From Morinoia aosen (Eukaryota; Arthropoda; Malacostraca; Amphipoda; Talitridae): 64,000 nucleotides of DNA. The notes beneath the pieces are model-generated. The model did no database searches. It was not told the origin of the DNA and saw only the letters and a program-made list of their open reading frames with translations. Position numbers and translations under genes: made by a program. Below are positions 18,719 to 63,189 of this stretch, piece by piece; the first letter of the stretch is position 1, and every line of letters starts with the position of its first letter. The DNA lies in the NCBI GenBank assembly GCA_030386875.1, contig CM059567.1:56466020-56530019 (forward strand). The letters run 5' to 3'.

Positions 18719-19603
18719 TCACGGGTCTGCCACCGGAAGACGAGGATGACGCACGCCTTCAGGTAAAGGCTGCTGAGGCCTCTGAAGTTTCTTCAGCCCG
18801 GGAAAAGGCGCGGAGGGGTTGGCAGGCGGGAGATGAGAATGTACCTCTTTTGCTGCTGTGCTCGGTCTGGGTGGAACCTTGTCCTCCCTCCTAGATTTCT
18901 CTAGGGTTAAACTACTAGAAGGTGGAGGATTGGCAGGAGGTAGAGGAGGAGGAATCTCTTTGGTGACGACTTCTTTTCGCTTGTGAACATCGTTGTCTTT
19001 CCTCGACTGGGTGAGAACTTCTCCTCGAAAGGTTCTTTTTTCTGGTAACTTCCAAGGCAAATCTCCTGCTAGAGAAGTAGGTGTGCTGTACACAGTCGAC
19101 GGGAAGTGGGACAAGCCAGGAGGAGGCTCTTGGACAACAGTATCACTCAAACTGCTATAAGTGCCATCATGATCCAACGGAATTTGAGGGTTCTTCAAAT
19201 TTTTCACTCTAGATACAACCTCATTTTCTGCCGAGCTAACACTGCTGTTACTCGAAGACCCAGAGGATGAATCGGCACCGTTTGGTTGGAGCTCTTTTCT
19301 AGGCCCTGTTATCCCTGTCTCAAACGGGGACAGATGAGCAGACTGCGAGTCGCCAACCCCGGAGAAAACTCCCTCCTGGGTTAGACCTGTCAGGTAGTCG
19401 ACCAGCAGAGCGGCTCTGGGCCTGTGGCTGGGGTTGAGCGCCCAGCAGAATGCCATGAGTTGGTAGAGGACATCAGGGCACGTGGGAGGCTGGGCAAGAC
19501 GGTAGCCGTCACGCAGGTACTCGGCCAGGTGTGAGCAGCTCAGGCCGTCGTACGGCTGCTGTGCCAGGCTGCTCAGCTCCCAGGCCACCACGCCCCACGA
19601 CCA
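18719..19603 (-). CDS. Ryk: RYK exon 11: end of kinase domain and C-terminal tail
   Basis: Acceptor GTTGCAG^TGGTCG, phase 0, joining exon 10 as ADV^[11 protein letters not shown]. Residues 648-718 finish the kinase lobe ([23 protein letters not shown]) and match RYK very closely. The next ~220 residues are Ser- and Pro-rich, with polyproline stretches ([13 protein letters not shown]) that could bind SH3 domains. Family members I know end soon after the kinase fold, so this tail is unusual. TGA stop at 18719-18721. Confidence 0.93.
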   Translation of the reverse strand, partial: WSWGVVAWELSSLAQQPYDGLSCSHLAEYLRDGYRLAQPPTCPDVLYQLMAFCWALNPSHRPRAALLVDYLTGLTQEGVFSGVGDSQSAHLSPFETGITGPRKELQPNGADSSSGSSSNSSVSSAENEVVSRVKNLKNPQIPLDHDGTYSSLSDTVVQEPPPGLSHFPSTVYSTPTSLAGDLPWKLPEKRTFRGEVLTQSRKDNDVHKRKEVVTKEIPPPLPPANPPPSSSLTLEKSRREDKVPPRPSTAAKEVHSHLPPANPSAPFPGLKKLQRPQQPLPEGVRHPRLPVADP

Positions 19604-22600
19604 CTGCAACCGTAAATTGTTAAACATTTAATACCACGCAAAGCTGCGCAATTAAAGCACTCAGTTCCCAGGCCACCACGCCCCACGACCACTGCAACCG
19701 TAAATTGTTAAACATTTAATTCCACGCAAAGCTGCGCAATTAAAGCACTCAGTTCCCAGGCCACCACGCCCCACGACCACTGCAACCGTGAATTGTTAAA
19801 CATTTAATTCCACGCAAAGCTGCACAATTAAAGCACTCAGTTCCCAAGCCGCCGCACCCCACGACCACTGCAACCGTAAATTATTAAATATTTAACTCCA
19901 CGCGAAGCTACGCAAATAAAGCATACCTACAGCTGGGTTCAGCATTCCGAGAACTGGAATTTCGTTGTTTTCAGTTACAGAGAAGCGTAAATTATACTGC
20001 ATAATCATACAACATCCGGCGTTATTTAAGAATAAAAAGCATCATGGAGAAATAAATAACGGTCCATTAGAATTCGATTACTCTTCTTGAATTTAGTAAA
20101 ATCAACATTATTTAGGATGAGAAAGTTCGAAAAGTAATGTTTTAGTGCCACAAAACTTCCATTTGATGCCATTCTGAGTTGAAAAAATTAGGAGATATTT
20201 CGCAACGCAATCCAAAATAAAAGTTCACACTCAACTAAAGGTTGCAACGCGGAGAGCATTTTTCTCGAAAACGAACTGAAATTGGAAGTTAATTTATGAG
20301 AAAAATTTATTTGAAGCGACAGGGTAAAGCGACTTGTATTTATTTCTCTGTGTAAAATTTTTAATCTACGAGTAATTAATACGGCAGAGATGAAGAAACT
20401 TACCACATCAGCAGGCATGGAGACGGAGTCTTCAGTTATTGCCTCTAAAGACATCCAGGCGACGGGCCGCCGGTCGACCGCCGCAGCTGCTGGCGCTGTC
20501 GACGAGCTTGACGTCGAGGCAGACGAGGACGAACTTTCGCTGCTGGTATCAGCATCTTGCTGCTCTGTCAGGAGCTGGTAGTCGTCAGGGAAAAGATCGC
20601 TTGAGAAAGCACCGTCTGTCAGCCTCACAAGGTATTGCGCCGTCACTCTGATATGGACACAAGCACGAGCGGGTGAGTGCTTCCAGGTGGGCCGAAGGAG
20701 AAAAGTTTTATACAGAGTACGCGTGGGAAGATAGCATGAAAGTTTTTGCAGAGTGTTTGGGAAGGTAGCACGAAAGTTTTACGCAGAGTACGCAAGGGAA
20801 CTTAGCACAAAAGTTTTATGTAAAGTACTCATCGGAAGATAGCTCCAAAGTTTTACGCAAAGTACCCAAGGAAACAGCACAAAATTTTTACCAGCTCATC
20901 GGAAGATAGCACGGAAGTTTTATGCAGAGTACGCGTGGGAAGACAGCACGGCTCACGAAGTTGGAAATGAGTCACGACTCACATAGAGCTGCTTTACTCA
21001 CGTGAACTGTTGGCCAAGAAATCCAACGCAAACTGATAAGGCTCCTCAGGCCCTGTACTGACAGGTGGTGAGGTCAGGTTTTTCTCCTCCAATCTTGGCT
21101 TTTATCCTCACTTCTATTTTGGGTGCAAAAGTTAGAGCTGCTTGACTCACGTGAACTATTGGCTAAGAAAACCAGCGTAAACAATATCACTCACAGGCAG
21201 TTGCGAGCAGCGAGAGTTATTTTGCCCACGTAAAAACCAGCGTAAACAATTTCACTCACAGGCAGTTGCGAGCAGCGAGAGTTATTTTGCCCACGTAAAA
21301 ACCAGCGTAAACAATATCACTCACAGGCAGTTGCGAGCAGCGAGAGTTATTTTGCCCACGTAAAAACCAGCGTAAACAATTTCACTCACAGGCAGTTGCG
21401 AGCAGCGAGAGTTATTTTGCCCACGTAAAAACCAGCGTAAACAATATCACTCACAGGCAGTTGCGAGCAGCGAGAGTTATTTTGCCCACGTAAAAACCAG
21501 CGTAAACAATATCACTCACAGGCAGTTGCGAGCAGCGAGAGTTATTTTGCCCACGTAAAAACCAGCGTAAACAATTTCACTCACAGGCAGTTGCGTGCCG
21601 CGAGGTCTGCGTGCGGGATGTTGCAGGAGTGCAGGTGGGCGAGCCCCTGCGCCACCTGCAGCGCCATCTGCTGCAGGTCCTCCGGTGTGAGCGGCATCGT
21701 GCGCTCCTTCAGGAACCTGCAGCGGGTGTGGGGGTCTCATTACTTGCTGGGGAGCTTCTAAAGCCACAACACTTTGGGCTGAGTGGCAGAGGAGACGGCT
21801 CCAGTACGTGCCAATGCCTCACATACATGAAAACGGCTAAAAGACTTGGAAATGCCTCCAAGATATGAAAACGTCTCCGAGACATGAAGACGTGTCCAAT
21901 ACATGAAAACGTCTGCAATACATGAAGATGCAACCCAAACAGGAAAACTGCTTCAATACATTGGAACGTCTCCAATGCATGGAAATGCCTCCTAAACATG
22001 GAAATTCTTCAATACATGGAAACATCTCCAAAACTTGGAAACTTTTCCAATACATGAAAATATCTACAAGGCATGAAAACGTCACCAATGCATATAAATA
22101 TATATAATACAAAACACAACAACGTCCTCAAGGTATAAAACTGCCTCCAGGACATGAAGACTGGAATAAATCCCTGATGATACAGTGGCTAAAGACATTA
22201 AAGAAATACACGAGAATACACGTACATGCAGGTAGCCTTATATTTAGTTTTTAAGAGCATGTAGAAACTTCAACGCATATGCATCAACACTCCAGAGATC
22301 GGATTCAGCAAAATAATTTATAGCAGTGTCCAGGTGCTCATTTTGAAACATTTCCCGTTGTCGTAGCTGTGAAGCGGGCAGCATTTAGTTTTTAGCTCCA
22401 GAAACTTAGGCTGCGACTTGTGATACTACGACAGCGTAATTGTTTGAAGTGTTATCTGTGAGTGCAGACTCAACTTTTGCAGAAGCCTAATATCACTTAC
22501 ACTAATATCACCACTCACACCACCACCACCACCACCACTCATACCTACCACCACTCACACCTACTACCACTCACATTTTAAGGTTGCGATGACCGTGGTC

Positions 22601-25600: not shown

Positions 25601-28600
25601 GTCGTTTGATTAGATGACTTTACAAACAAATTTTATAGAGATATTTAGGATAATTAGCAGTCATGTTGAGTGGTTTTAAGTCACTATACAGTTGTGGAAA
25701 TTGTTGGCAATTTTACGAATGCAAATATTTTCTGAGAGTAAATAAATGTTTTGAGATCCTCATGTTAACTATAAAATTTGCTGTTTTTTTAAGTTTATGC
25801 ATTCGTAAATCATTTAAGTCACGAACATGATAGGTCATACAAATTTAATTTCCAGCTTTTATAGTGGGCTTTAAAAATATCGATGAAAAACCATCAGCAG
25901 CAATGCTGTAAATATTTAACTGCATACATGGCGTTAATGTTCCATCACGCGTGGTTACCAACCTCCAAATGCTTCCATTGCGTGCGCACGTCCGCCATTG
26001 ACACTCCAGGAAACTTTGCACCCTTGAACGTCATCGCCTCCCAGAAAGATGCGGTGGACAACTTCTCCGCAGTCGGCCTCGGGCCGTTCGGATGGTGGGG
26101 TGTAGTTGTTGTTGGTGTGTGATGTGCTGCTACAGGGGCATGAGTGTGGCAAGACGGAGTGTATAAGATGGGCGTGTGGTGAGTAGAACAGCTAAAAGAG
26201 TTGTCCGGCTTGTACATCGGTGTTGGATGGATAGACAGAGCACAGGCAGAATCGAATTTTTCGCTCGTAGCATCTTTAGGGCGTTGTGGAGGGTACACGC
26301 AAGGTGTATTCGGCGCATTAAACGCAGGTGCGCTGGGTGTATGACGATTAGTTTGGGTGTGCGGTGCATCACTGCGGTATATGGAGGCGGTGTGCGGGAA
26401 GTTAGGGGGACCTTGCAAGGCAGAAGGTGATGGAGACAGAAGAGTTGTCCACGTGACTGAACGAATTTTTTGGTCGATGGTGAACACGGTCCTGTGGAGG
26501 AAACAAGGGTCTACGACTGGCTCATGACTCAAAATTCATGGTTCGAAGTTTTTTTGCAAACTGTATGTACCACTTGTGACCCGTTAGGTAAATAATCGTA
26601 TTGATAGATTTGTAACATATCGTACCCACAATACACTTAAGATATCATATTTTTGTTTCTAATTTTTGTTCGATTTATTTTTGAAAGCAGAGCGTAGAGG
26701 GTGATAAAAAAATAAACCAACAGGATGATCAGAGTTCAAGTACACTAGAGACCAGTCAGCCTCCTTCTATGAAAAATATTTCGTTCAAAAAGTTATTGAA
26801 AAAAACAGTGGGAAATATCTTACGTAAAATGAACATATGGGATACATCGTATCGACATAACAACGTATGGGATTTCTGTAAGGTGAATGAAGAAAAATGT
26901 TAATTTTGAAATAAATAAATTCTTCAATTATTTACGATATGAAAACGAATTAAATCTTATTTTGTCGCTTAAAACAGTGTGAACGGAGACCAGCAATAAA
27001 CCACCAAGTTAGCAACCATATAAGCGAACCAAGTTATCACTTTTTTTGTGTATTCACATATCGTTCTAGTCATGAAGAAATTCATGCGTTGCCATGCATC
27101 GATTCTTTATGACTCATTTATGACATCGATAAAGAAATTATTTTTGATGCGATGAGGTGAAGAAACGATCAGCAAACGAGGGCTTCCTTAGCTGCTGTTA
27201 CCTTCAATATATAATCAACACACGTCACGTGGGAAAAGTTATTGAAGAAGCTTAAAAAGCACCCTATATCTTATAAATGAAGTAAATGCTACAGTAGTTT
27301 GCGTACTATGTACGACTAAATGCATTAAGACCATTAATTTAAGTAACTAAGGAGTGTATTTACAACTCTAGAAAACATTCTCATCTGCAAGAAAGTGTGT
27401 ACTCCCTGAGTCGTAACTGCATTCAAATCAATAATTTTAGTAACTAAGGAGTTTATTTATAATTCTAGAAAACATTCTCACCTGCAAGAAAGTGTGTACT
27501 CCTGACAGGTAAGTGCATTAAAGTGAATAATTTTAGTATCTAAGGAGTTTATTTACAACTCTAGTAAACATGCGTGCTTGCAAGAAAGCGGGTACTCACT
27601 GAGCAGGCCCTGGAGGGTTTGGTTGCTTGTTGTGACGGGTACGGGAGCATCTGAAGGCCGCTGCTGCAGCCACCACAGCCACCACAACCACAGCCCCCAC
27701 AGCCACACCCACAGCCACCGCCAGCTGCTCCACCTGCCACAGCCGCCGGTCTTCCGTCGGTCCTTCCTCCGCCACAGCGGTCCCTGGGCTGTGGCCTTCG
27801 GCGGGGACAATATTCTATTTAACCATCATCGTTGTAAGTTTGTAATATCATCACTGAGTAACTATTCTCAGGTTGTGCCAGTCCGTAGTGTCATCACTAA
27901 GAAACTCTGGTCAGATGATCATACGGTTCAAGTCCGTAGTGTCATCTCTAAATGACAATTCTTAGATAGTTGAATGATTTAAGTCTGAAGTGTCTTCACT
28001 AAGTCATTATTCTTAAATGGCTATAAGGTTTAAGTGTGTAGTGTTATCACTAAGTCATTTTTCTGTGATAGTTACACTGTTCAAGTCCGTAGTGTCATTA
28101 CTAAGTCACATTTGTCAGAGAGATACGGCTTAAGTCCGTAGTGTCATCACCAAGTCACTTTTCTTAGATAGTTACACGGTTCAAGTCGTGAGCTTCCCAA
28201 GGAACGGTTTACAGAAACATGAGGAACAAGATTTATACAATAAGCCAAGCCTATCTAAAACTTCCATGTAATGCACAATGAAAACTCCATAACGAAATAA
28301 AAGGTAGGATTAAAATATAACTCTAGGAATACCCATAAAAGGTAGCATTAAAATATAACCCGAGGAATACCCATAAAAGGTAGCGTTAAAATACAACTCG
28401 AGGAATACCCAATAATCAGGAGCTCTAGGAGTTCACCTTCGAGGCAAATTTTGCGCCTCTTGACATAGAGGACGGTGGGGAGCTGTGAGGGCCGTGAGGC
28501 CGTCACGTTGATGTTGAGCGTCACGTGCACCTGCCCGCTGCGTGCGCCCGTGCACGGCAGGTGCAGCGCCAGCGTCTCCGGCGACTTAGGCACTGTGCCT

Positions 28601-31600
28601 GAGGTCACAACAAATGGTCCTCCCTAAATCGGCATAGTATTAAAATACTTAAAATAAAATTCGACTCAATGTGTTAAATAATTCAGAAAGAACGTCCCTG
28701 AGGTCGCATAACAAATGGTCCTCATCATTGTGTTAAAAATTTATAAAAACATAAAACATTTCGAGAGAAAATTTTGCTTGTCTGAGTAAGTAAAATTGTG
28801 CCTAGTAGGAGAAAAAGTTACGGTTTTGCACTCCATCAGTACACAAATGAGTACAGAAATAACAAATGTTCTCCTCAGACTCGGCATAGTGAAAATTGCA
28901 CAGAAATACTAACAAGATGCAACTTACAAGTGAGATAAAAATTTAGCTTGTCTAAGTAAAATTGTGCCTTGTAAAAGAAGAGAAACGGTTTTTTCCTTGA
29001 GTAAAAATTGAAAAAGTACGTCCTTGAAGTCGTTCAGAAATAACCAATGTTGCCCTAAGACTAGTCGTATGAAAAATTGTATTAATTATAAGCACAACGT
29101 ACATACAACAATGAATGAAATTTAATTGTTAATTCATAATTACTTAAATAGAATGATGCTGTTTAAGAGAGAATTTATTTTTCAGCAGAGAAATAGATCA
29201 CTCGCCAGCAGTGGAGACGTTGAGGTACGGGGCGTCCATGAGGGCGAGCGGCGCGGCGGTGGAGGCGACGGACGCGTCTCTGGAGCTGAGGTCCTCGGCC
29301 TTCGAGGGGTCGGGGTGAGGGGCGTCCTGCGGTGGCGAGGGGCTGTGTGTCGTCACCGCCATGTTGTACAGCAGCTGTACAGAGAGGAAGGGTTGTACAT
29401 CAGATGTAAACAGAGGAGGCAAGAATCACCTTAGCTGCAAACAGAGGAGGCAAGCATCATTTCAGCTGCAAAAAGAGGAGGCAAGCATCGCCTTAGCAAC
29501 AAAGAGAGGAGGCAAGCATCACCTCAGCTGCAAAAAGAGGAGGCAAGCATCACCTCAGCTGCAAAGAGAGGAGGCATGCATCACTTCAGCTGCAAAGAGA
29601 GGAGGCATGCATCACATCAGCTGCTGAGAGCGGAGGCAAGCATCACCTCAGCTAGCACTTCAGTTACATCATATGACAATTAAGACAATGGGCAAAAATA
29701 TTGATAATATGTTCTATCTTTATGTGGACAATTTTCATTGACGGATACTACGCAATTCAAACCCGCGTTGGGTAATTTAACAATTACAAATTCTTCGACT
29801 GAAGTTTGCTAAACAAGCGCTGGCGAATGTATACATAGAGCATCTGATTCAAATCAATAAACTGTTACTCTCAGATATGCCGTGAATTCATGCATACGTA
29901 TTTTATGTCTAAGCCTATTTTGTTTAGAATTTGAAATTTCGAATCACGAACTTTCTTCCACAACGAAGATTTACAACCGTGTGATCGAAATTTGCCTGAA
30001 TGTTGTACCAGATCTTTCATGCGTTTATCAGAGAGCATCAGCCAATTTTGTTTAGGAATTGAAATTTCAAATGGTAAACTTTCCCTTGCCATAAAAATTT
30101 ACAACCGCGTGATCGAAATTTACCAGAATGTTGTACCAGATCTTTCATGCGTGCATCAGGAAGCATGAACGCTGGCAAGCAGCTCAGGTACCTGGAACGT
30201 CAGTACAGGAGCTGCGGCACAAAAGCTGGGGGCGGCGAAGGGGGCGGCGAAGGGCTTAATGGCCATCCATCTCTTTTAGTGGCGTCAGAGGGCTTTTTTA
30301 AGCGGGCGACTAAGTGCTCGCCGCCTCGAATTTAATGCAGACTTGCCTAAGAGCGGCGAGGGGGCCGCTATGACACTTTTAAAGGAGCGCGGTCCGTGTT
30401 GCTAATAAAACGCTTAAGCGGAACTCCAGCTTCGTTTCGGCTTGGTTGGCAATAAATGTTTGGCCCGTAGGTTGGATACGGTGTCGCTGGATATTTGGAG
30501 GATTTGTTCACTCACGGTTTGCCTTTAGGCACACTCTGGGTCAGACTCTCTGAATTTCCTATGAGCATCGTTCGTTCGTTCGTATGCCTTCACTAAAAAC
30601 TGAGAAGTAACATAAGTTGTATACCTTTAACAAAGAAGTCGTCAACCATGCCGGAAAAAATGTACAGCTCTGTTCTGCTCGTCTTGTAGGTCATGAGAAA
30701 TATTTTCATTCCCTTTGTTAACGCGGACAACTCGTCATTCTGCGACGGTTTTGTAGTACGAACATATTCATTGAACTAATTTTACATTCCTCAAAAAATT
30801 CTGGTGTTGTTTCTAAGATAGAGCTAAGATTATTTCATCAAAACTGTTTTTAAAAGAACGTATAGAATTGCAGATTATGGATTACCTAGATCTTTTTCAG
30901 AAGAATCTTTACGTTCATAATTATGCTGTTGCCAATATTTGCATTAAAACTGCTTTCCTGTGGCCATTGAGGTTCAAAAAACGCAATAAAATCTTTTTAC
31001 AGCATTAATATTTCATCTAAAAAAATTACTGCAGCTGTTAGAGCATCTAAGCTAGAAATTTGCTTGGAAACTCAATAATGAAACAGGTTAAATAGTTGGA
31101 AGTAAACCTTAGATTCAAAACCTTTCTTTAAGCTATGAAGTAACGGGATTTCACGAACATGATATTTTAAAACCCAAATTTATCTCTGTAAGTTTAATTG
31201 TGTTTTGAACTGGTCTCACTCTAACAATCTCAACATATTGTAATAAAAAGTACACTAATCTATACTCGATAGCACCTTCTCAAAGCTTAATATGTTTTAT
31301 TTTTGCTTTTGAATTTTAGTATGAAAATTCCATGACCGACGGCCAGAATAGTCCACTCAATTGAATAAGATGGATGTATTTTATTGTCTCCTGCCTTCAA
31401 ACTTGAAATAATGCTTCTCAATTATCCACACTACCCTTTTTTTGAAGGCGTCAGTATTCATCTTTATTTCTGACACGTAGCCTGATTATTAAACGTCGAA
31501 TTAAATCTCAACTTATATCACATTTGTGGTACTCTATATCGTGCAGTGTCTTTCCTGCGACCAAATCAAGCGTCTTAAGAGCTCTGGTCTACCCAATGTC

Positions 31601-37600: not shown

Positions 37601-38877
37601 CAAATCCTCCATTCATGTGGCACGCTGAGGTCCACCCAATTATTCATGAAATAAGGCTCGTGCAGCAGACCTGAATTATGTCGAAATTCATGCCACAGAG
37701 GCGGCGTTGGCTGCAGACCTGCTGCCGACTTAATTAAAACGCAGCCACAAAAAGTCGCGTCCGTTCCGCCGAAAATATCTGAGAGATTTTCTCTCCCGGA
37801 CCCACTTAGGAATTTAGGCATTCCGCGCACAAGAGTAATTCTGAAAAGTTTTCAAAACTGGCAGTAAAGTTCTTTTAATGCGCGTTTCTGTGTGGCGCGC
37901 GTGTGGGACTCCTTAAAATTGTGCTCGTGGAAGCTGTGCTAGGGAGCAAGTGCTCTCGCTGGCGTCTTTTGTCTTGCTTGCATCTGGGCAGAGTAGCAAG
38001 ATATCTAGGGGGCTTAGCTAGAGGCTTGCACCTCACCCAGCATGCGCCTCACTCACCCAGTATGCGCCTCACTCACCCAGTATGCGGCTCAATCACCCAG
38101 TATACGCCTCACTCACACATTATGCGCCCCACTCACCCAGTATGCGCCCCACTCACCCAGTATGCGCCCCACTCACCCAGTATGCGCCCCACTCACCCAG
38201 TATGCGCCCTACTTACTCAGTATGCACCCTACTCCCCCAGTATGCGCCCCACTCACCCAGTATGCGCCGCACTCACCCAGTATGCACCCCACTCACCCAG
38301 TATGCTCCGTGCTCTCCCATTATGCACCCCACTCACCCAGTATGCGCCCCACCCAGTATGCGCCCCACTCACCCAGTATGCGCCCCACTCACCCAGTATG
38401 CGCCGAACTCACCCAGTATATGCCCCACTCACCCAGTATGCGCACCACTCACCCAGTATTGCACCCTACTCACCCAGTATGCGCCCCACTCACCCAGTAT
38501 GCGCACCACTCACCCAGTATGCACCCTACTCACCCAGTATGCGCCCCACTCACCCAGTATGCGTACCACTCACCCAGTATGCACCCTACTCACCCATTAT
38601 GCACCCCAATCACCCAGTATGCGCCTCACTCACTCAGTATGCGCCCCACTCACCCAGTATGCGCCCCACTCACCCAGTATATGCCCCACTCACCCAGAAT
38701 GCGCACCACTCACTCAGTATGCACCCCAGTCACCCAGTATGCGCCCCACTCACCCAGTATGCGCCGCACCTCTGTGTTGGTAAGGTAGAGGTTGAGCAGA
38801 GCGGCGGCAGAGGCAGCGTGCACCACCACCAGCAGCAGGGAGCTCAGCAGCCTCCTGGCGAGCTGACCTGTCCTCAT
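18719..38877 (-). CDS. Ryk: RYK/Derailed-family Wnt receptor pseudokinase (complete coding region, 11 exons)
   Basis: The spliced reading has 11 coding exons with mutually consistent phases: 2,826 nt, about 941 residues. Order: signal peptide (1 to about 25); WIF domain (about 28-192) starting [20 protein letters not shown], with a Cys pair C156/C192 and an NVT glycosylation site; tetrabasic KRRK at 187-190, a proteolytic site known in RYK; transmembrane helix about 215-238; juxtamembrane region 239-432; kinase domain about 433-718; proline-rich tail to 941. The kinase lacks a normal Gly loop (SGHFCQ), keeps the VAIK lysine (K466), has HAD at 557-559 and DGA instead of DFG at 577-579, matching the atypical family. 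Known family role: a single-pass Wnt co-receptor in axon guidance and polarity. Vertebrate RYK and fly Derailed are about 600 residues; the excess lies in the juxtamembrane, activation-loop and tail regions. Orthology to derailed, Drl-2 or doughnut is not resolved. No 5' UTR exon or promoter was identified. Confidence 0.94.
19572..19922. repeat. 88-bp array seeded on the exon 11 acceptor (four copies including the real one)
   Basis: The block CTCAG(C/T)TCCCAGGCC starts at 19572 (inside exon 11), 19660, 19748 and 19836, exactly 88 bp apart. Every copy carries the acceptor GTTGCAG^TGG and about 33 nt of exon start. The two nearer decoys encode the same residues ([11 protein letters not shown]), differing from the exon only by GAA for GAG; the farthest has V-to-A changes. 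A decoy read through without a donor meets a stop about 22-24 codons in. The remainder of the unit is intronic. Confidence 0.95.
20404..20647 (-). CDS. Ryk: RYK exon 10: activation segment
   Basis: Acceptor ATATCAG^AGTGACG (phase 2) and donor GATGTG^GTAAGT (phase 0). Encodes residues 567-647: [20 protein letters not shown], where DGA replaces DFG, through [11 protein letters not shown] (APE-equivalent region). A ~27-residue Asp/Ser/Thr/Ala low-complexity insertion (about 597-623) sits inside the activation loop, between TEQQ and DRRPVAW. RYK proteins known to me have only a few residues there. Confidence 0.95.
20690..20950. repeat. About 38-bp degenerate array just upstream of the exon 10 acceptor
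   Basis: Roughly seven diverged copies of GGGAAGATAGCAC followed by AAAGTTTTACGCAGAGTACG. It begins about 45 bp from the exon 10 acceptor but does not include the junction, unlike the arrays at exons 9 and 11. Confidence 0.85.
21170..21590. repeat. 65-bp array seeded on the exon 9 donor (six decoys plus the real site)
   Basis: GGCAGTTGCG recurs with spacing of exactly 65 bp: GCAG at 21197, 21262, 21327, 21392, 21457, 21522, and at 21587 in the real exon. On the minus strand each unit reads CTCGCTGCTCGCAACTGCCT^GTGAGTG, encoding LAARNCL with an intact donor. The exon has GCG GCA where the decoys have GCT GCT, both Ala-Ala. Copies alternate CAATATCAC and CAATTTCAC in a partly dimeric order, implying multi-unit duplication. 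Confidence 0.96.
21585..21716 (-). CDS. Ryk: RYK exon 9: kinase hinge to catalytic loop
   Basis: Acceptor GCTGCAG^GTTCCTG (phase 2); donor TGCCT^GTGAGTG (phase 2). Residues 522-566: [20 protein letters not shown], then [18 protein letters not shown]. The catalytic loop has HAD (557-559) for HRD but keeps the catalytic Asp and Asn564. It joins exon 8 as NLK-M-FLKER, matching NLKLFL of human RYK. Confidence 0.95.
21790..22150. repeat. Degenerate 17-18-bp array (ACATGAAAACGTCTCCAAT)
   Basis: About 20 diverged copies in the intron upstream of exon 9, starting about 75 bp from its acceptor. The splice junction is not part of the unit. Confidence 0.8.
22500..22574. repeat. Donor-like direct repeats at the exon 8 donor
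   Basis: On the minus strand the intron begins GTGAGTGGTAGTAG, and within 75 nt repeats GTGTGAGTGGTGGTAG, GTATGAGTGGTGG (with a GGT run) and GTGTGAGTGGTG. Four GTGAGTGG-like motifs follow the exon. Copies are short and mixed with a GGT microsatellite, so seeding from the donor is likely but less certain than at exons 1, 9 and 11. Confidence 0.8.
22575..22753 (-). CDS. Ryk: RYK exon 8: kinase N-lobe with VAIK-type lysine
   Basis: Acceptor GTGCAAG^GTGCTGG (phase 0); donor AAAAT^GTGAGTGG (phase 2). Residues 463-522: [20 protein letters not shown], then [18 protein letters not shown] and [15 protein letters not shown]466 is the ATP-anchoring lysine position and E475 a candidate alpha-C Glu. The acceptor has a poor pyrimidine tract; a hAT-type element starts only about 50 nt upstream. 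Confidence 0.9.
22805..23040. mobile_element. Non-autonomous hAT-type element inside RYK intron 7
   Basis: The ends are inverted copies: CAGTGGTTCTTAATCATG on the left and its near-complement AGGTTAAGAACCACTG on the right. CAGTGGTTCTTAA is a common hAT terminus. Inner sub-terminal ..GAACCCCATG.. blocks are also inverted. No transposase. The 8-bp flanks (TGGTTCTG and AGCTAGTT) do not match, so no target-site duplication survives or limits are slightly off. Confidence 0.8.
23560..23965. repeat. 20-bp array beginning next to the exon 7 donor
   Basis: About 20 copies of ACAACATAGAGCACATGTAC and variants. On the minus strand the array starts within about 20-40 nt of the exon 7 donor, whose intron opens GTGTGTGTTTGTGTGTAC. 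The exon sequence is not in the unit, so this is array adjacency, perhaps seeded from the TG-rich intron start. Confidence 0.9.
23979..24068 (-). CDS. Ryk: RYK exon 7: degenerate glycine loop
   Basis: Acceptor CCCTCCCCAAG^ATCGAG and donor GAGAAG^GTGTGTG, both phase 0, exactly 30 codons (433-462): [20 protein letters not shown], then [10 protein letters not shown]. It aligns with the RYK segment RITLKDVLQEGTFGRIFHG, but the GxGxxG loop is reduced to a single Gly (SGHFCQ). Confidence 0.9.
24080..25962. other. RYK intron 6; nothing recognised
   Basis: AT-rich. I see short [16 protein letters not shown] repetition near 25,050-25,200 and no coding or RNA feature. Confidence 0.6.
25963..26491 (-). 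CDS. Ryk: RYK exon 6: long cytoplasmic juxtamembrane region
   Basis: Acceptor TTTCCTCCACAG^GACCGTG (strong pyrimidine tract, phase 2). Donor TTGGAG^GTTGGT (phase 0, weak consensus). 529 nt, residues 256-432. Rich in His, Thr and Pro ([22 protein letters not shown]), so probably disordered. It is supported by an open frame, matching phases at both ends and its position between the membrane and kinase exons, more than by similarity. It is much longer than the equivalent linker in human RYK. Confidence 0.8.
26492..27324. other. RYK intron 5, left part; nothing recognised
   Basis: AT-rich intronic sequence without a recognisable element. Confidence 0.6.
27325..27607. repeat. 96-97-bp array seeded on the exon 5 donor (three copies, two decayed)
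   Basis: GCAAGAAAG recurs at 27387, 27484 and 27580. On the minus strand the real site reads CCTGCTCA^GTGAGTACC. The decoys read CCTGTCAGGAGTACAC and ACTCAGGGAGTACAC, in which the donor GT is lost. Each copy then continues CTTTCTTGCA and a shared AT-rich body ending ATAAACTCCTTAG. Confidence 0.85.
27600..27783 (-). CDS. Ryk: RYK exon 5: transmembrane helix
   Basis: Acceptor CAGCCCAG^GGACCG (phase 1); donor CTGCTCA^GTGAGTACC (phase 2). Residues 195-255: [20 protein letters not shown], then a hydrophobic run ([18 protein letters not shown] then five Ala, about 215-237), then the basic stop-transfer FRCSRTRH. The other frames of this GTG/GCT-rich stretch are also open (one is Trp/Leu-rich) but do not satisfy the phases of exons 4 and 6. 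Confidence 0.9.
27830..28200. repeat. About 57-bp degenerate array (AAGTCCGTAGTGTCATCACTAAG)
   Basis: Six or so diverged copies of AAGTCCGTAGTGTCATCA followed by CTAAGTCA and a GATAGTTACACGGTTC block, in RYK intron 4 just upstream of the exon 5 acceptor. The junction is not in the unit. Confidence 0.85.
28285..28425. repeat. 38-bp array next to the exon 4 donor
   Basis: Three to four copies of AGGAATACCCATAAAAGGTA followed by GCATTAAAATATAACTCG, spaced 38 bp (28325, 28363, 28401). On the minus strand the real intron starts GTGAACTCCTAGAG and the units contain GGTATTCCTAGAG, so the array may derive from the first 14 intronic bases. Adjacency is certain; derivation is only suggestive. Confidence 0.85.
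28437..28598 (-). CDS. Ryk: RYK exon 4: end of WIF domain and tetrabasic site
   Basis: Acceptor GACCTCAG^GCACAG (phase 1); donor CTCGAAG^GTGAAC (phase 1). Residues 141-195: [20 protein letters not shown], then [11 protein letters not shown] and [13 protein letters not shown]156 and C192 correspond to the conserved WIF cysteine pair. KRRK at 187-190 matches the tetrabasic cleavage motif of RYK and Derailed. Confidence 0.95.
29206..29374 (-). CDS. Ryk: RYK exon 3: central WIF domain, ending at an apparent GC donor
   Basis: Acceptor CTCTCTGTACAG^CTGCTG (phase 0). Residues 85-141: [20 protein letters not shown] to [14 protein letters not shown] Ser/Pro/Ala stretch of about 40 residues lengthens this part of the domain. 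The only donor that keeps phase with exon 4 is GCTG^GCGAGT, giving NVSTAGTVP against NISVQGEVP in human RYK. The nearby GT (GCGA^GTGATC) would put exon 4 out of frame. Confidence 0.9.
29400..29655. repeat. 31-bp array seeded on the exon 3 acceptor, about eight copies
   Basis: Units of CAGCTGCAAAAAGAGGAGG and GCAAGCATCACCT recur every 31 bp (29463, 29494, 29525, 29556, 29587). On the minus strand each reads CCTCCTCTTTTTGCAG^CTG, a strong pyrimidine tract, AG and CTG, like the real CCTTCCTCTCTGTACAG^CTG. The array begins about 30 nt upstream of the real acceptor. Confidence 0.9.
29920..30170. repeat. About 125-bp duplication
   Basis: Two copies share ATTTTGTTTAG, ATTTACAACCG(T/C)GTGATC and TGTTGTACCAGATCTTTC. 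Located in RYK intron 2. Confidence 0.85.
30171..32305. other. RYK intron 2, right part; nothing recognised
   Basis: A CpG- and GC-rich patch at about 30,180-30,420 (GGGGGCGGCGAAGG motifs) stands out against AT-rich surroundings and may be an old repeat or a regulatory island. Nothing else is supportable. Confidence 0.5.
32306..32433 (-). CDS. Ryk: RYK exon 2: N-terminal WIF domain
   Basis: Acceptor TCGTCTCAG^GACTGG (phase 1); donor ACGAAGGAG^GTCAGT (phase 0). Residues 42-84: [20 protein letters not shown], then [18 protein letters not shown]. This matches the RYK WIF segment AELYYVRNDLINHYALSF..LHFTW closely. No tandem array touches either edge of this exon. Confidence 0.96.
32930..33075. 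repeat. Degenerate repeat, three copies, in RYK intron 1
   Basis: Copies of CTGCGCTGCCTTACTGTAAG followed by TCGTCGCTAT. Contains GTAAGT-like strings but is about 500 bp from exon 2. Confidence 0.75.
34180..34650. repeat. CAGCAA/CAACA-rich degenerate repeat in RYK intron 1
   Basis: Irregular 30-40-bp units such as CTGCAGCAACGTCCTGAGG. Further CAA-rich sequence follows near 34,860-35,020. Non-coding. Confidence 0.7.
35515..35835. repeat. 12-bp minisatellite (CAACTGGCACAG) in RYK intron 1
   Basis: About 26 copies. Being a multiple of 3, it keeps both strands open as Gly-Thr, Val-Pro or Cys-Ala-Ser repeats; these are artefacts. Confidence 0.96.
36640..36870. repeat. 21-bp minisatellite (GGTTTCAGGTACCTTCGGTGT) in RYK intron 1
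   Basis: About ten copies of a 21-bp unit. Open frames through it are artefacts of the length. The plus strand contains repeated TTTCAG/GTACC, which looks splice-like, but no exon is recognised beside it on either strand. Confidence 0.95.
36871..38030. other. RYK intron 1, right part; nothing recognised
   Basis: AT-rich to about 37,540, then mixed composition to 37,900. No element or coding segment identified. Confidence 0.55.
38035..38753. repeat. 20-bp array seeded on the exon 1 donor, about 35 copies
   Basis: On the minus strand the exon ends GCGCATACTGG^GTGAGTGGG, and this same 20-bp string (GCGCATACTGGGTGAGTGGG) then repeats about 35 times with small changes. Nearly every unit keeps CTGG^GTGAGT, a near-perfect donor with its exon bases. 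The plus strand reads as long open Thr-His-Pro-Val-Cys-Ala frames, which are artefacts. Confidence 0.98.
38754..38877 (-). CDS. Ryk: RYK exon 1: start codon, signal peptide, start of WIF domain
   Basis: ATG at 38875-38877 gives [20 protein letters not shown] followed by [22 protein letters not shown]. The hydrophobic core plus Ala-rich cleavage region make a typical secretory signal, and [14 protein letters not shown] matches the RYK WIF start (LYLSEDEVRRLIG). Donor ATACTGG^GTGAGT, phase 1, fits exon 2. The first ATG after an upstream in-frame stretch that enters the minisatellite was chosen. Confidence 0.94.
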
Positions 38878-38889
38878 CGTGCGGCCCGG

Positions 38890-46529: not shown

Positions 46530-46745
46530 AGTACATCTGTATATGGTCAGCACATCTGTACATGGGCAGTACATCCGCACATAGGTAGTGCATCTGTGCA
46601 AGGACAGTACATCTGTACAAGCTTGGGCAGTACATCTGGACACGGGCAGTACATCTGTACACAAGCAGTACATTTGTACACGGGCAGAACATCTGGACAC
46701 GGGCAGAACATCTGCACACGGGTAGTATATCTGTACAGGGCAGTG
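46530..46745. repeat. 19-20-bp minisatellite (GTACATCTGTACACGGGCA)
   Basis: About eleven copies with small indels. Non-coding. Confidence 0.93.
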
Positions 46746-48200: not shown

Positions 48201-48599
48201 GGGAGAAGCATAGGGAGAGTACTTTGGAAGCGAGGGCCAACTAAGACGAGAGTATGAAAGAGTAAAAGGCATGGGAAAAGCAAAGGGGAACTTGGGGAAG
48301 CACTGGGAAGCTATAATGAGAGCATTGGGAAAGAAGTTGAAAATATGAGAAAGCGAGAGGACAAAGGGAGTAAATGGTGGGGAGAGCACAAAGAGAGTAT
48401 GGAAAAACGTAAAATCATAAGCATAGCGTGAAGCGAGCGTGGGGAGATTACGGAGAAGGCATGGGAAAACACTAAAAACAACGGAGTTAAAGAGTGTGAG
48501 ATTATGGAAAGAATATGTGCAAAGCATAGGGAGAGCGTTTGGAAAACATGATAAGAGCGGAGAAAGAGCATTATTGGTGTGTGGAAAGATTATGGAGAG

Positions 48600-53349: not shown

Positions 53350-53428
53350 ATGCGCTGGAAAGAACCCGTCCGCTACTGGCTGCCTGTGGCGGTGGCGGCA
53401 TGTCTTATCAGGCTCACACTGCAACAGG
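53350..53428 (+). CDS. Gene 2 exon A: signal peptide
   Basis: ATG at 53350 with a purine upstream (GCGCGGAGATGC). Encodes [20 protein letters not shown] then RLTLQQ. Donor CAACAGG^GTGAGT, phase 1. Confidence 0.82.
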
Positions 53429-56400: not shown

Positions 56401-59400
56401 AGCAAGAATGCAACCCAGCTATAGAGGGAAATCTCGTCGCTGACAGCTGGCAAGAAATACTCTTTATGCGTAAACAAAACTCTATCATATACCGAGATTT
56501 GCCTTTGACTGGAGCGGAAGATGAGTCTCCGCAGGATTGGAAGCCATACAACTCCTCGAACAAGTTACCTGACGCTGGCATGCTGCCTCAACCTAAGTAA
56601 GTGGTATTTTAGATGGCTCTGAGGGAACTTTTCATTTTACCATTGGGACCTAACGTTACCAGTTAAACTCTTTGTGACCTCTGTATCATTTGAGTTCTGA
56701 TTTTATTACTAGAAAATCGCAGTCGAGATGCTGTGGTATGCTGTGTTTGAAAGAACGGAACTGTAGATATGTTTGACTTCAAAGCCATTAAGTTCAATTT
56801 TGAGAATTTTTCCATTCATTCATTTGGTATTGTATCATTTATAATTATTTTCATTTTATTACTTTATTTCCTGAGAATTGTCATAAGTAGCCTTACATTA
56901 CGTAATCATTAAATATCCAGTGATAAAATAAAAACCGTAACCCTTCTAATAATGGTACAAATTATGTGAGTACAATTATTCATTTCCTTAAACTGTTCAA
57001 CATGATGGCGAGGGTTACGCCAGGTACAAATATGTCCGGCTACCCTTTCATCTGTTATGAGGATACCCTTGTTGTACCAGGAATAAAAATACGAAGTTAA
57101 ATTGAGGTACTCACTCATTTTGCATGAAAAGTATCTCTTCTTATCTCCTAAGATTTACGAAAGCTTGGTCAGCACTGCTCCAAATGAAATTAACTATATT
57201 TCAAGGTTAACATAATTTTACACCTTCATCAGTCATCGAAATCTGTTACCAATCATTTGATGCTACGATTTTTATGAATAGGTTTGGAAATGCAGAAGGA
57301 ATTCACTCAGCTCTCTTGCACAACAAGCCACGATAACGTGAAGTACAGGTTTGGAAAATATGGTGAAAATGTAACGTTCGATGCTCGAATAAAATAATAA
57401 TCGTATGAGTCACTTGAGTGTGGTTATGCTTTAGAAAATTTAGCATCACTCAGATATCTTGCGCAAACTATTTACAGCATGAGGCTTTAACATGAAAATG
57501 GGTGTCATTTACGACACTTCTAGAATCGAATCATGGACCAAAGTTATAGAATTAGCTCATTTTGCTAAAACTTTAAAATAAAAACCTGATAAAGTCTGTC
57601 CCATTCCACTGCCGCTACCCTCACCCGTACAGGGGTCACGTGATCACCGTCACGCCGTGCAGTGACCTAGAGTCCGACCTGATCCTAGTGGCCAGAAATG
57701 CCTTCAACTTCGACGACGCGGAGGCTGCGTGTCGCAAGCTGAACGGCAGCTTGCCCTCCCGGGACCACCCTTCCTACGAGCTCATGAAAGACGAGGTGCG
57801 AGGGTGACGTCAATACAATAAGTCAGCAGACATATGCGTCTCATCTATTGGGGGCTATTTTGTATTTTTATTTAGGAGGTGCGAGGGTGACGTTAATACA
57901 ATAAGTCAGCAGACATATGCCTCTCATCTACTGGGGACTATTTTGTATTTTTATCTGCGAGTTACGAGGGTAAAAATGCTTTTCGTAATAAGTCCTCAGA
58001 CGTATGTGTCTCTACTACTTTGGATTATTTTTTATTTTTATTTGCATTGCTTAGGGAGTGACTATTAAAATTTCCATTGCCTCTATCTAATGGTATGGTA
58101 TGTTAATGGTATGTTAAGTATTTTAAATAACAAAGCTCATCACAAATAAGGGTTCGCTCGTGTATCTGGAAGCGCCCTCGGTATGATACTAGAATAATAT
58201 CGCTCTACTCTTTCTTTTATATTGTTGTTGGAAGCCTTGTAAGGCGGCTGCATGAAGTCATTTTATGTAAGTTTGAATGACAAAAAACTATCGTTGACAG
58301 TCTCTTCTAGTGCTTGCTCTCCCAGTTGATTTAGAATTGGTTGCTTCTAGCATTCGCTTGAGTGTGACACCGAGTTGTACCGTTGGATGTATGTCGTTCA
58401 ATTTAGATTAAATCATTTCAGCGCCATGCAATGTTTCGTTCTATTCATGAACTGGAGTTCTCAATACTGAGGTGATGCCATCAAAATATTGCATAGAAAA
58501 ATTTAACCTGAAATACAGAACAAGTTTATCCGTGATACCACACACCTCTTTACAGTCTGAATTTTTCTCTGTACCGTTATTACAACCTTCATTGATGGAC
58601 TGGTGCTGGTAAAAAAAATGGCACCGACGGAAAAATGAGAATGGAACTTCCTCTCGGCAGTAAACTTTAAAAAACACAAAAAGATACAAATTCGACAAGA
58701 AATAAAGCATAATAGAGTCATTCAAACAAAATCAAAATCCACGAGAAGCTTGGGCTTAGAAAATGCTCTTTTTTGAACAATATATAATCCTATTGAAAAT
58801 GCCACATCTGTTAGGGCTGTTAAACAATTTTGTCCTCCTGAATTCAGGTCACTCAGATGAGAAACACGAGAGTAGAAATGAGTTAAAAAAAAGAAGCTGA
58901 GGACGGTGCCCTTTATCTTGACGTTGAGCAAGTGCTGTACAACAGTTGGTGGGGAGATGGAAAATTTGTTGCTGATCTACTTCCCATTGAAATTCAACCG
59001 CTTCTTTATGATGCTACAGTTCTCAGAGACTATTTACTGTAAGAATCTTGCTTTTAAGCTTTCGGTATTATCGATTACGACAGGATTATGTAATACATCA
59101 CGTTTTTCCGTGCAGTTTGTGTTTTTCAAGCTTTCGGTAGTATAAACCATGACAGGATTATGTACTATAAGAAGTTTTGGCCTGCAGCTGTATCGCCAAG
59201 AGTCACAAGTTTTGTTTTGGATCAACGAGCGCTTCGAGAACGACACCTGCATGCTGACCGTCTACAGTGGCTCATCATACCTGGCGATGTCAATGATTTG
59301 TTCTGCAGAAGTAGCTCAGCAGCTTGTGTGTGACGTAAGTCTTTTTCCTTTTCACTCGTCTCCATGTTTGTCATGTGACCCACCAACGACGTCTACTGCT

Positions 59401-62400: not shown

Positions 62401-63189
62401 ATTTACTCTTCTTCGTCAGGGATTCAAAACTGAGGTTGCTATCTCCATCTGTTCTGAGGTAATAAAAATTGTATCTTGGGCTTGTTTACTGTTCTAGAAA
62501 CGTGAACATTGAACATGGAATTTTGACCACTAAGGTGAGTAAAGATAGTTTTCCTTAGCATGAAACTCAATTTTTCTCTTGCTCATAAAACATGAGATGA
62601 TTTCCGAATAACTCATGGATTACTCTTTGTGAAAGTTCTAATCACAGAATGAGCACAGGGTGAGTGAGTGAAGTAGCAAGTATGAATTTCAGTTCCTGAA
62701 TGCGAGGAGAAACGGCATGCTAAAATTCTAACTAGTTTTTAATTCAAATTCTCCCAAATTTTGTATTTTTCTTACTTTTTGATTCATAGATTATAGAAAG
62801 ACAGAAGTAGCCACATCTGAAAATGATACCAAGCTATTTGTAAAAGTAGCTTAGATAGGGATTGGTGCTGCCAATGTCTCTACTGTGTTGACAGGACGAG
62901 TGTTGACACAGCAGGTGTTAACAGGACGTAGGCACAGCTGAAGCGAGTGTGTTGACAGGACGAGTTCACCTGCTCGGACGGGTCCTGCCTGCCCGTGACG
63001 CACCACTGCGACGGTGTGGAGCAGTGCTCAGAGGCTGAGGACGAGGACTGCCCCCAGAACGCACTCCTGCCGGATGGCTACAACCCCGCCAGGGCGCCCC
63101 AGCTGAAACTGCCCGTGCAGCTCCGGGTCCGCATTGGAAAAATATCTGACATCGACATTTCCAACGGACACCTCAAAGTCAAAATGGAG
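53350..63189 (+). CDS. Secreted or membrane multidomain protein: LamG/pentraxin-like + C-type-lectin-like + LDLa + probable Cys-loop ligand-binding domain (5' part)
   Basis: Ten exons give a phased reading of about 543 residues and continue past the window edge. Order: signal peptide ([20 protein letters not shown]); a LamG/pentraxin-like domain ([50 protein letters not shown]); a lectin-like stretch ([18 protein letters not shown], then a Cys-rich end); a linker domain; one LDL-receptor class A repeat ([26 protein letters not shown]); and [20 protein letters not shown], which resembles the first strands of a Cys-loop channel ligand-binding domain. The channel call is the least certain, because the pore region lies outside the window. 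I do not recognise a named orthologue. The C exon has no clean donor (see its entry), so pseudogene status cannot be fully excluded. Confidence 0.75.
53799..53987 (+). CDS. Gene 2 exon B: start of LamG/pentraxin-like domain
   Basis: Acceptor TGTGAGGCAG^GCCTAG (phase 1, TTTTTTGTCTG tract upstream). Donor TTTCAA^GTGAGT (phase 1). Encodes [20 protein letters not shown] then [26 protein letters not shown] is typical of the first strand of such domains. Confidence 0.75.
54208..54945. mobile_element. Cluster of four copies of a tRNA-related SINE, two in each orientation
   Basis: Minus-oriented copies lie at about 54208-54463 and 54463-54574 (truncated). Plus-oriented copies lie at about 54576-54797 and 54798-54945. 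The plus consensus contains an A-box-like TAGCGCGGTCGATAGCG and a B-box-like GAGTTCGAGTCTC (54662-54674 in the third copy), then CGCGAGCTCCTTG and an AT-rich body. The head-to-head pair forms a large inverted repeat inside intron B-C. Open frames here are artefacts. Confidence 0.82.
55382..55411 (+). CDS. Gene 2 exon C (uncertain donor)
   Basis: Acceptor GCGGGATTAG^GCAACAGG (phase 1) gives [10 protein letters not shown] after exon B. The open frame continues ([16 protein letters not shown]) to a TAA at 55459. The GT after that stop has the wrong phase and would include the stop. The only GT in phase with exon D is AAGGAGC^GTTACT at 55412, a weak donor. Either that site is used, or the donor is non-canonical, or the gene or assembly is damaged here. 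Confidence 0.5.
55593..55777 (+). CDS. Gene 2 exon D: core of LamG/pentraxin-like domain
   Basis: Acceptor CATTGAACAG^TGGCC (phase 1). Encodes [20 protein letters not shown] then [17 protein letters not shown] and [11 protein letters not shown]. 'W(V/H)HFC..F' followed by '(I/F)FINGD' is characteristic. Donor CTTGAT^GTAAGT, phase 0. A second GTAAGT donor 72 nt downstream (CTTCCA^GTAAGT, 55850) is also in phase and could give a 24-residue longer form. Confidence 0.82.
56089..56214 (+). CDS. Gene 2 exon E: LamG/pentraxin-like domain, late strands
   Basis: Acceptor AACTCTCTCAG^GTACAG and donor GAAGAG^GTGAGT, both phase 0, 42 codons. Encodes [20 protein letters not shown] and [15 protein letters not shown]. 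An alternative open frame through the same bases ([12 protein letters not shown]) fits exon F less well: ITEEE^VSRQQEC matches the usual 'L(S/T)EEE....C' end of the fold. Confidence 0.75.
56391..56596 (+). CDS. Gene 2 exon F: end of LamG/pentraxin-like domain and linker
   Basis: Acceptor TCTCTTTCCTCAG^GTCAGT (strong, phase 0); donor CCTAA^GTAAGT (phase 2). Encodes [20 protein letters not shown] then QEILF and a polar linker to PDAGMLPQP. The 'C....GN(L/V)V..W' pattern closes the domain. Confidence 0.82.
57633..57795 (+). CDS. Gene 2 exon G: first half of C-type-lectin-like domain
   Basis: Acceptor CTCACCCGTACAG^GGGTCA (phase 2); donor AAAGACGAG^GTGCGAGG (phase 0). Encodes [20 protein letters not shown] and [20 protein letters not shown]. 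'A...C..L.G.LP' is the classical lectin-like helix-2 signature. Confidence 0.88.
57793..58060. repeat. 83-bp array seeded on the exon G donor (three copies including the real one)
   Basis: GAG^GTGCGAGGGTGACG occurs at the exon end (57793) and again at 57876. A decayed copy, GAGTTACGAGGGTAAAA, starts at 57959. Spacing is exactly 83 bp both times. The first decoy keeps GAG^GTGCGAGG intact; the third has lost the GTG. The body includes AATAAGTCAGCAGACATATG. Confidence 0.95.
59056..59190. repeat. 72-73-bp duplication including the exon H acceptor
   Basis: AAGCTTTCGGTA starts at 59056 and 59128, and ACAGGATTATGTA follows in both. The first copy ends TTTTTCCGTGCAG^TTTGTG; the second is the real acceptor, TTTTGGCCTGCAG^CTGTAT. 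The pyrimidine tract and AG are thus duplicated, but exon bases are not conserved in the upstream copy. Confidence 0.8.
59188..59334 (+). CDS. Gene 2 exon H: second half of lectin-like domain
   Basis: Acceptor GGCCTGCAG^CTGTAT and donor TGTGAC^GTAAGT, both phase 0, 49 codons. Encodes [20 protein letters not shown] then [12 protein letters not shown] and [12 protein letters not shown]. The Cys spacing fits the end of a lectin-like fold, but the usual WLG block is missing, so this is a divergent or shortened domain. Confidence 0.82.
59691..60005. mobile_element. 315-bp foldback element (151-bp arms, 13-bp loop)
   Basis: Bases 59691-59841 are nearly the reverse complement of 59855-60005, starting GTGTATCGAG and ending CTCGATACAC. 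The loop is AGAGGCTCATACA. The transcript of this intron would form a very long stem. No coding content. I did not find a clear target-site duplication. Confidence 0.92.
60600..61685 (-). pseudogene. Tc1-like transposase remnant
   Basis: On the minus strand it starts about 61,640 with [20 protein letters not shown] (Tc1 helix-turn-helix region), then [18 protein letters not shown]. Shifted frames follow with pieces typical of the DDE domain: [44 protein letters not shown] and [18 protein letters not shown]. Several stops and frameshifts make it inactive. Inverted terminal repeats were not found. It lies in intron H-I of gene 2. Confidence 0.92.
62186..62458 (+). CDS. Gene 2 exon I: linker domain of unknown type
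   Basis: Acceptor TTTGTTCCAG^ATCCCT and donor TCTGAG^GTAATA, both phase 0, 91 codons. Encodes [20 protein letters not shown], then [15 protein letters not shown] and [14 protein letters not shown] do not recognise the fold. Position and phase place it between the lectin-like and LDLa modules. Confidence 0.78.
62884..62965. repeat. 30-34-bp repeats seeded on the exon J acceptor (three copies including the real one)
   Basis: TGTTGACAG^GACGAG occurs at about 62886-62900 and again at the real acceptor (62952-62964). A third copy, TGTTAACAG^GACGTAG, lies between (62916-62928). Spacing is 30 and 34 bp. Each carries the AG and the first exon bases GACG. The two intronic copies would be usable decoys. 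Confidence 0.88.
62959..63189 (+). CDS. Gene 2 exon J: LDL-receptor class A repeat and start of a Cys-loop-like domain
   Basis: Acceptor TGTTGACAG^GACGAG and donor ATGGAG^GTAATC, both phase 0, 77 codons. [20 protein letters not shown] followed by [11 protein letters not shown] has all six cysteines and the acidic calcium cluster of an LDLa repeat. [20 protein letters not shown] then HLKVKME resembles the first beta strands of pentameric ligand-gated channel ectodomains. The exon is GC-rich compared with its introns. Confidence 0.9.

What the first reader, a model, noticed from the sequence alone, without database searches (positions are those of the whole stretch)
18719..63189. Minisatellites repeatedly seeded at splice junctions in two unrelated genes
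At least eight splice boundaries in this window (RYK donors of exons 1, 5, 8, 9; RYK acceptors of exons 3, 11; gene 2 donor G and acceptor J), probably also acceptor H and the 5' edge of RYK exon 1, lie at the end of an intronic tandem array whose unit contains the splice site plus adjacent exon bases. Units share no sequence and have different lengths (20 to 97 bp), so each arose separately, yet all start at the exon edge and extend into the intron. Random array birth would rarely hit the exact junction this often. Possible causes: slippage between the exon edge and splice-like intron sequence, repair events directed to spliceosomal R-loops, or selection for arrays that only tolerably copy working splice sites. 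I know of no description of such a phenomenon, but I cannot search.
Basis: partly seen in the sequence, partly recalled or inferred. Interest (0 to 1): 0.93.

Follow-up and report, generated by a model that had tools for sequence, protein, structure and literature searches.

The report
Splice-junction-copying minisatellites in a crustacean
In this crustacean genome, short DNA repeats at the ends of introns often contain copies of the neighbouring exon edge and its splice site, a pattern already known from lancelets as "mirages", and in the genes sampled here it is more common near exons than chance would give.

Summary
In a RYK receptor gene (11 exons) and a neighbouring gene, six of the eight named junctions recur in their own introns as tandem copies with splice site and exon bases. 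Two others only touch an array; the two "probable" ones fail. The arrays are unrelated to each other.

The phenomenon is described already: arrays spanning exon-intron boundaries are the "mirages" of amphioxus, and boundary repeats are reported in human duplicated genes.

New here is a control test outside the window. Of 167 splice junctions in kinase, chaperonin and kinesin genes, 14 recur on the intron side, against about 3% of intronic positions (P=0.001; most of the signal is in the first 118). Array outer ends are two to three times commoner from 40 bp inside the exon to 80 bp into the intron than elsewhere. Arrays gather around exon edges rather than exactly at the junction. Units carry 0 to 38 bp of exon; most decoy sites stay intact. 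Two young kinase paralogs carry different arrays in one intron, so turnover is fast.

I read this as ordinary short tandem duplication, tolerated because the outermost copy still splices. The cause of the excess near exons is unresolved.

The parts
38032..38769 (-). RYK exon 1 donor array: 20-bp unit, 12 exon bases plus GTGAGTGG; first intron base 38753
   Evidence: TRF 37 copies; junction 24-mer recurs 24/24; 34 of 36 units keep GT and 28 of 36 keep GTGAGT
29362..29653 (-). RYK exon 3 acceptor array: 31-bp unit, about 12 exon bases; first exon base 29374
   Evidence: TRF 8.2 copies at 29400-29653; 20/24 recurrence at -29
21168..21604 (-). RYK exon 9 donor array: 65-bp unit, 20 exon bases; first intron base 21584
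   Evidence: TRF 6.7 copies; 23/24 recurrence; within the copied 20 bp the exon differs from the copies at two synonymous sites
19572..19923 (-). RYK exon 11 acceptor array: 88-bp unit, about 32 exon bases; first exon base 19603
   Evidence: TRF 4 copies; 24/24 recurrence at -88; the same intron in the second RYK copy has no array
57791..57971 (+). Gene-2 exon G donor array: 83-bp unit, about 3 exon bases; last exon base 57795
   Evidence: TRF 2.2 copies; 18/24 recurrence at +83; boundary from reading frame only
62893..62966 (+). Gene-2 LDLa-exon acceptor repeat: offset 64 bp, about 7 exon bases; boundary 62958|62959
   Evidence: 18/24 recurrence at -64; LDLa domain
27317..27603 (-). RYK exon 5 donor array: 97-bp unit touching the donor, few exon bases, donor motif lost in the copies
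   Evidence: best 16/24
22494..22575 (-). RYK exon 8 donor: 16-19-bp GTGAGTGG-type array starting at the donor, no exon bases copied
   Evidence: best 13/24
38893..40102 (-). 37-bp array ending 15 bp upstream of the RYK start codon
   Evidence: TRF 32 copies; sequence; no splice site demonstrated
59052..59187 (+). 72-bp duplication filling most of the 149-bp intron before the gene-2 exon at 59188
   Evidence: junction itself does not recur (13/24)

Best explanation
These are mirage-type minisatellites. A short tandem duplication (about 20 to 110 bp) straddled an exon-intron boundary and then grew into the intron by unequal exchange or slippage. It is tolerated because the copy next to the exon (first donor or last acceptor) still provides the normal junction, while the intronic copies are ignored decoys. 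Such duplications are not placed exactly at junctions; they cluster in a zone from about 40 bp inside the exon to 80 bp into the intron, at two to three times the density elsewhere. Shown: the arrays, the excess in that zone in the sampled genes, mostly intact decoys, unrelated units, and differences between paralogs. Inferred: that the outermost copy is the one used, growth by unequal exchange, and near-neutrality.
For: The six window arrays. Outside the window, one-sided recurrence at >=18/24 at 12 of 118 paired-call junctions, 1 of 22 in kinesins and 1 of 27 one-sided calls. Outer ends in [-40,0): 12 of 118 against 3.7%, within-locus resampling 11 of 110 against 3.1 expected, P=4e-4; in [0,80): 17 of 118 against 6.6%, resampling P<2e-4; no excess at 100-340 bp. 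With kinesins added, 15 of 140 in [-40,0) and 33 of 140 in [-40,80). Intronic copies keep GT/AG in 138 of 152 cases in 22 arrays (copies were picked by similarity to the junction, which favours intact ones). Among 10 arrays with enough copies, splice dinucleotides are less mutated than the unit average in 7 and more in 3, P=0.16. No array end between -200 and -40 in exons. Paralogous kinases L015/L016 show 1 against 6 extra donor copies, with acceptor copies in only one of them. Two of 18 units are multiples of 3, so there is no frame-keeping. Passages of PMC3087553 report RT-PCR with normal splicing at such arrays in amphioxus.
Against: No transcripts were available, so use of the outermost copy is not shown. 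The kinesin and one-sided sets alone show no significant excess on the 24-mer metric (1 of 22, 1 of 27). With the window's own 4.3% background the pooled P rises to 0.014. At >=20/24 the pooled count is 9 of 167, P=0.009; at 24/24 the first set has 3 of 118, ratio 2.0, P=0.19. Four of the 12 hits are weak (18-19/24), and one (L031 donor) copies no exon and keeps no GT. Intronic pseudo-acceptors also show raised one-sided recurrence (4.9% at >=18, 5.9% at >=22, n=185, against 2.8% and 1.4%), so on the acceptor side the sequence itself may be part of the cause. Exon parts are shorter than uniform placement predicts (maximum 38 bp, P=6e-4), so something beyond random placement, probably selection, shapes them. 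In human duplicated genes such repeats do change splicing, so neutrality is not general.
Confidence: 0.72

Rival explanations
1. History of introns: introns were once short, so any duplication fell near a junction; arrays then lengthened the introns and still sit at their ends, while other insertions and deletions clear arrays from the interior.
For: The L015 intron (334 bp) consists almost only of copies of its own two ends, where its paralog L016 has about 270 bp of other sequence. The 149-bp gene-2 intron is about two copies of a 72-bp unit.
Against: The excess holds among near-identical copies in unconstrained intron windows, 3-4x at >=22/24 from 20 to 40 bp in, though only 1.8x at 60 bp. 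It also holds in introns under 700 bp: 1.9 against 0.5 array ends per kb.
Confidence: 0.3
2. The exon flank is a real hot spot of tandem-duplication birth, through transcription- or splicing-linked damage or repair, or through the local sequence itself.
For: Enrichment confined to about -40..+80 bp, not explained by GC content (GC-rich intronic 24-mers recur less), and present for near-identical copies. Intronic pseudo-acceptors show 4.9% one-sided recurrence against 2.8%.
Against: No breakpoint signature was tested. Strong intronic pseudo-donors show no one-sided excess (3.1% against 2.8%, n=129), so the donor motif alone is not the cause.
Confidence: 0.2
3. Chance only: a repeat-rich genome in which some arrays must hit junctions.
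For: Arrays are dense everywhere: 5.9 per 10 kb and 17% of the window. The two later junction sets are not significant on their own.
Against: Expected 3.1, observed 11 of 110 in within-locus resampling, P=4e-4. Locus bootstrap 95% interval of the paired-call recurrence rate (13 of 140) 4.7-14.1%, against 3.2% background.
Confidence: 0.08
4. Selection for redundant splice sites or for decoys that regulate splicing.
For: Decoys mostly stay intact: 138 of 152.
Against: Splice dinucleotides are not significantly better kept than the rest of the unit (P=0.16). Array presence differs between close paralogs.
Confidence: 0.04

Closest known systems
Mirage minisatellites of amphioxus (Adh3, BflGb6/BflGb9 globins, TnC, PGBD5)
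   Same: Tandem units (10-160 bp) spanning donor or acceptor boundaries, extending into the intron, both boundary types, intact AG/GT in many copies, copy-number differences between haplotypes (PMC3087553 and PMC3902484, passages read; original Adh3 paper not held)
   Different: Here in a crustacean, in other genes. Frequency and positional excess are measured against controls; the passages I read give no such test. Transcripts and haplotypes were not examined here.
Variable internal tandem repeats at exon-intron boundaries of human segmentally duplicated genes (PMC2812944, passages read)
   Same: Minisatellites (about 30-bp units) at exon-intron boundaries that differ between paralogs
   Different: There they are reported to create novel introns and alternative splicing, with RNA support; here no transcript evidence exists and the existing junction seems kept.
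Intron gain by tandem duplication of AGGT-containing exon segments (Rogers 1989 as cited in PMC3087553; potato RdRp case PMC4974935, search listing only)
   Same: Short tandem duplication that multiplies splice signals
   Different: Here the introns exist already and are lengthened; no new intron is shown.
Intronic VNTRs and minisatellites in general
   Same: Unit lengths and copy numbers
   Different: Ordinary intronic VNTRs do not contain the exon edge.

Membership tests
Mirage minisatellites | Tandem array whose unit spans an exon-intron boundary | tested here: met
   Six of 38 window junctions and 14 of 167 outside
Mirage minisatellites | Both 5' and 3' boundaries affected | tested here: met
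   Window 3 donors and 3 acceptors; outside 8 donors and 4 acceptors in the first set
Mirage minisatellites | Copies may retain AG/GT signals | tested here: met
   138 of 152 copies in 22 arrays
Mirage minisatellites | Normal mRNA despite the duplicated sites | not testable with these tools
   No transcripts held; homologous proteins fit use of the outermost copy
Mirage minisatellites | Length instability between haplotypes or in soma | tested here: inconclusive
   Differences between paralogs, not between alleles
Intron gain by tandem duplication | A new intron bounded by duplicated copies | not tested
   No related species' genome was available

The most novel reading that the evidence does not exclude
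The 100 bp or so around exon edges is a mutational hot spot for short tandem duplication in this genome, linked to transcription or splicing, and mirage growth is a routine way in which introns lengthen and are renewed, roughly one splice junction in eleven carrying such an array at present.
Probability: 0.25. Interest if true: 0.78.

Novelty: new member of a known kind. Interest (0 to 1): 0.48.

Why it matters
Mirages were described gene by gene in lancelets. Finding them at several per cent of sampled junctions in a crustacean, with a measured excess near exons, suggests they recur across animals. It makes two old questions testable: how introns grow, and how spliceosomes ignore dozens of good decoy sites (34 GT-bearing tandem units at RYK exon 1).

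Tried and rejected
Constraint artefact (an exon copy decays more slowly, so its arrays stay visible longer): rejected, since windows lying wholly in free intron sequence show the same 3-4x excess.

GC content: rejected. Donor motif as the trigger: strong intronic pseudo-donors show no one-sided excess; 38% of them do lie inside arrays, because arrays multiply decoys. Acceptor-like sequence as a trigger is not rejected: pseudo-acceptors are raised, and sites in one array are not independent.

Turnover of the intron interior: weakened by the short-intron result, not excluded.

Gene-2 homologue search: none at E<=0.001; a Laminin_G_3 hit below cut-off and an LDLa domain only. Calling gene 2 a ligand-gated channel would be recall, so I do not.

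Literature: nine searches were answered; I saw titles and abstract starts, and passages of six papers. Besides the lancelet papers, PMC2812944 reports minisatellites at exon-intron boundaries in human duplicated genes. The "mirage" of PMC7960049 is a transposon name. In PMC3152781 (Daphnia tandem repeats) the term 'splice' does not occur.

Full report
What the window is. It holds a RYK/Derailed-type receptor gene on the minus strand (WIF domain E=4e-28, kinase domain E=8e-46). After one unnamed record, the best named relatives are decapods (Scylla, Macrobrachium, Penaeus, Procambarus), so I take the organism to be a decapod or close malacostracan crustacean (inference). A second gene on the plus strand carries an LDLa domain but found no homologue at E<=0.001. 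Tandem repeats with period >=10 cover 17% of the window at 5.9 arrays per 10 kb. Twenty gene stretches of about 9-10 kb elsewhere (L009-L028) range from 0 to 13.7 arrays per 10 kb, so the window is not unusual.

The observation. I fixed 38 splice junctions (20 RYK, 18 gene 2). RYK boundaries 1/2, 2/3, 3/4, 8/9, 9/10 and 10/11 fit homologues P0001, P0002 and P0005 by eye. About two are expected from the background of 4.3-5.3%. The array unit of exon 1 is 12 exon bases plus eight intron bases, 36 units found, of which 34 keep GT. In the copied parts of exons 9 and 11 the exon differs from the copies at synonymous sites only (read), as expected if the exon copy alone is under protein selection; for the other arrays I did not check synonymy throughout. 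The 11 arrays compared do not resemble one another.

The control test. Exon matches of tyrosine-kinase, chaperonin and kinesin families gave anchors; donor and acceptor were called from reading phase, profile continuity and splice consensus. Of 82 adjacent exon pairs in the fetched loci, 3 were skipped by the gap rule, 79 examined, 70 called (59, then 11) and 9 not called. In the first 118 junctions, 12 recur on the intron side only (>=18/24), against 2.8% of intronic positions, or 3.2% after correcting for array expansion; P=4e-4. The ratio is 3.0 to 4.0 for thresholds 18-23 and 2.0 (P=0.19) at 24/24. The kinesin set gives 1 of 22 (two of its 11 introns are copies of two others). A further 55 one-sided calls left 27 with at least 300 bp of intron held, and these give 1. 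Pooled: 14 of 167, P=0.001, or 0.014 if the window's own higher background is used; at >=20/24, 9 of 167, P=0.009. The later sets are too small to confirm the first alone, and they were chosen for short introns because of a limit on letters.

Where the arrays lie. In the first set the share of junctions with intron-side-only recurrence is zero from 36 bp inside the exon outwards, is about 9-11% from -6 to +30, and about 1% at 140-240 bp. Array outer ends occur at about 2.5 per kb from -40 to +80 and about 0.9 per kb in general. In within-locus resampling, [-40,0) has 11 of 110 against 3.1 expected (P=4e-4) and [0,80) has 16 against 5.4 (P<2e-4), with no excess at 100-340 bp. The kinesin set agrees: 3 of 22 and 6 of 22. 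In the window itself the counts are 7 of 38 in [-40,0) against 1.5 expected and 5 of 38 in [0,80) against 2.8. So arrays gather around exon edges and stop inside the exon; they are not pinned to the junction base.

Nature of the excess. It is not slow decay of a constrained copy: windows wholly in free intron, 20 to 40 bp in, show the same excess at >=22/24, fading to 1.8x at 60 bp. It is not GC content, and strong intronic pseudo-donors show no excess. Intronic pseudo-acceptors do show one (4.9% against 2.8% at >=18; 5.9% against 1.4% at >=22), which leaves local sequence as a possible cause on the acceptor side. In introns under 700 bp the zone still has 1.9 ends per kb against 0.5 inside. 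Exon parts reach 38 bp at most and are shorter than uniform placement within the unit predicts (18 of the 22 arrays; P=6e-4). I infer that longer exon copies are removed because they could be spliced as exons. Two of 18 units are multiples of three, so copies are not kept in frame.

Turnover. Two inverted kinase paralogs (L015, L016; 93-94% identity around this intron) share an intron that holds seven donor copies in one, and two donor copies plus four acceptor copies in the other (true sites included), where the intron is almost nothing but such copies. The second RYK copy on the same chromosome has the same intron 10 at 245 bp without any array. Arrays thus come and go on the time scale of gene duplicates.

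Comparison with what is known. Passages of PMC3087553 describe "mirages": minisatellite-like duplications of intron-exon boundaries in amphioxus globins, first named at Adh3 (Canestro et al. 2002, not held). Their units are 10-160 bp, RT-PCR suggests normal splicing, and the authors say the mechanism is unclear. PMC3902484 adds troponin C and PGBD5. Passages of PMC2812944 report variable minisatellites at exon-intron boundaries in human duplicated genes, where they can form novel introns. The arrays here meet the defining features of mirages that I could test.

Mechanism. I favour ordinary short tandem duplication across or beside the boundary, kept because the outermost copy preserves the junction, followed by copy-number growth into the intron. 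Why exon flanks carry two to three times more such arrays remains open between a mutational or sequence-driven hot spot and a legacy of once-short introns. Transcripts and population data would settle it.

Noticed in passing
G000:C12:66720080-66720640 (L062): A second RYK-like gene copy about 10 Mb away on the same chromosome, exon 11 about 82% identical, intron 10 (245 bp) without the array.
   Followed up: partly
G000:C27, 55-73 Mb: Many long-open-frame bacterial-type genes (tRNA synthetases, GroEL): looks like contaminant or unplaced bacterial sequence appended to the assembly.
   Followed up: no
L015 4162-4496, oriented (C20:79.17 Mb): A 334-bp kinase intron made almost wholly of tandem copies of its own donor and acceptor ends.
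   Followed up: partly
window 29205: RYK exon 3 appears to use a GC donor (GCGAGT), judged from phase and homologues.
   Followed up: partly
window 23979-24068: The RYK glycine-loop exon is degenerate (no GxGxxG), as expected of a pseudokinase (interpretation recalled).
   Followed up: no
window 54206-54951 and 61171-61425: Long inverted repeats and an open frame resembling a Tc1/mariner transposase by eye (family recalled, not searched).
   Followed up: no
window 38893-40102: The 37-bp array before RYK exon 1 has donor-like (CGTGAG) and acceptor-like (CCACAG) motifs in many of its units.
   Followed up: no
L020 and L045: Two receptor-kinase genes carry unrelated donor arrays (43-bp and 65-bp units) at what looks like the same intron position.
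   Followed up: no
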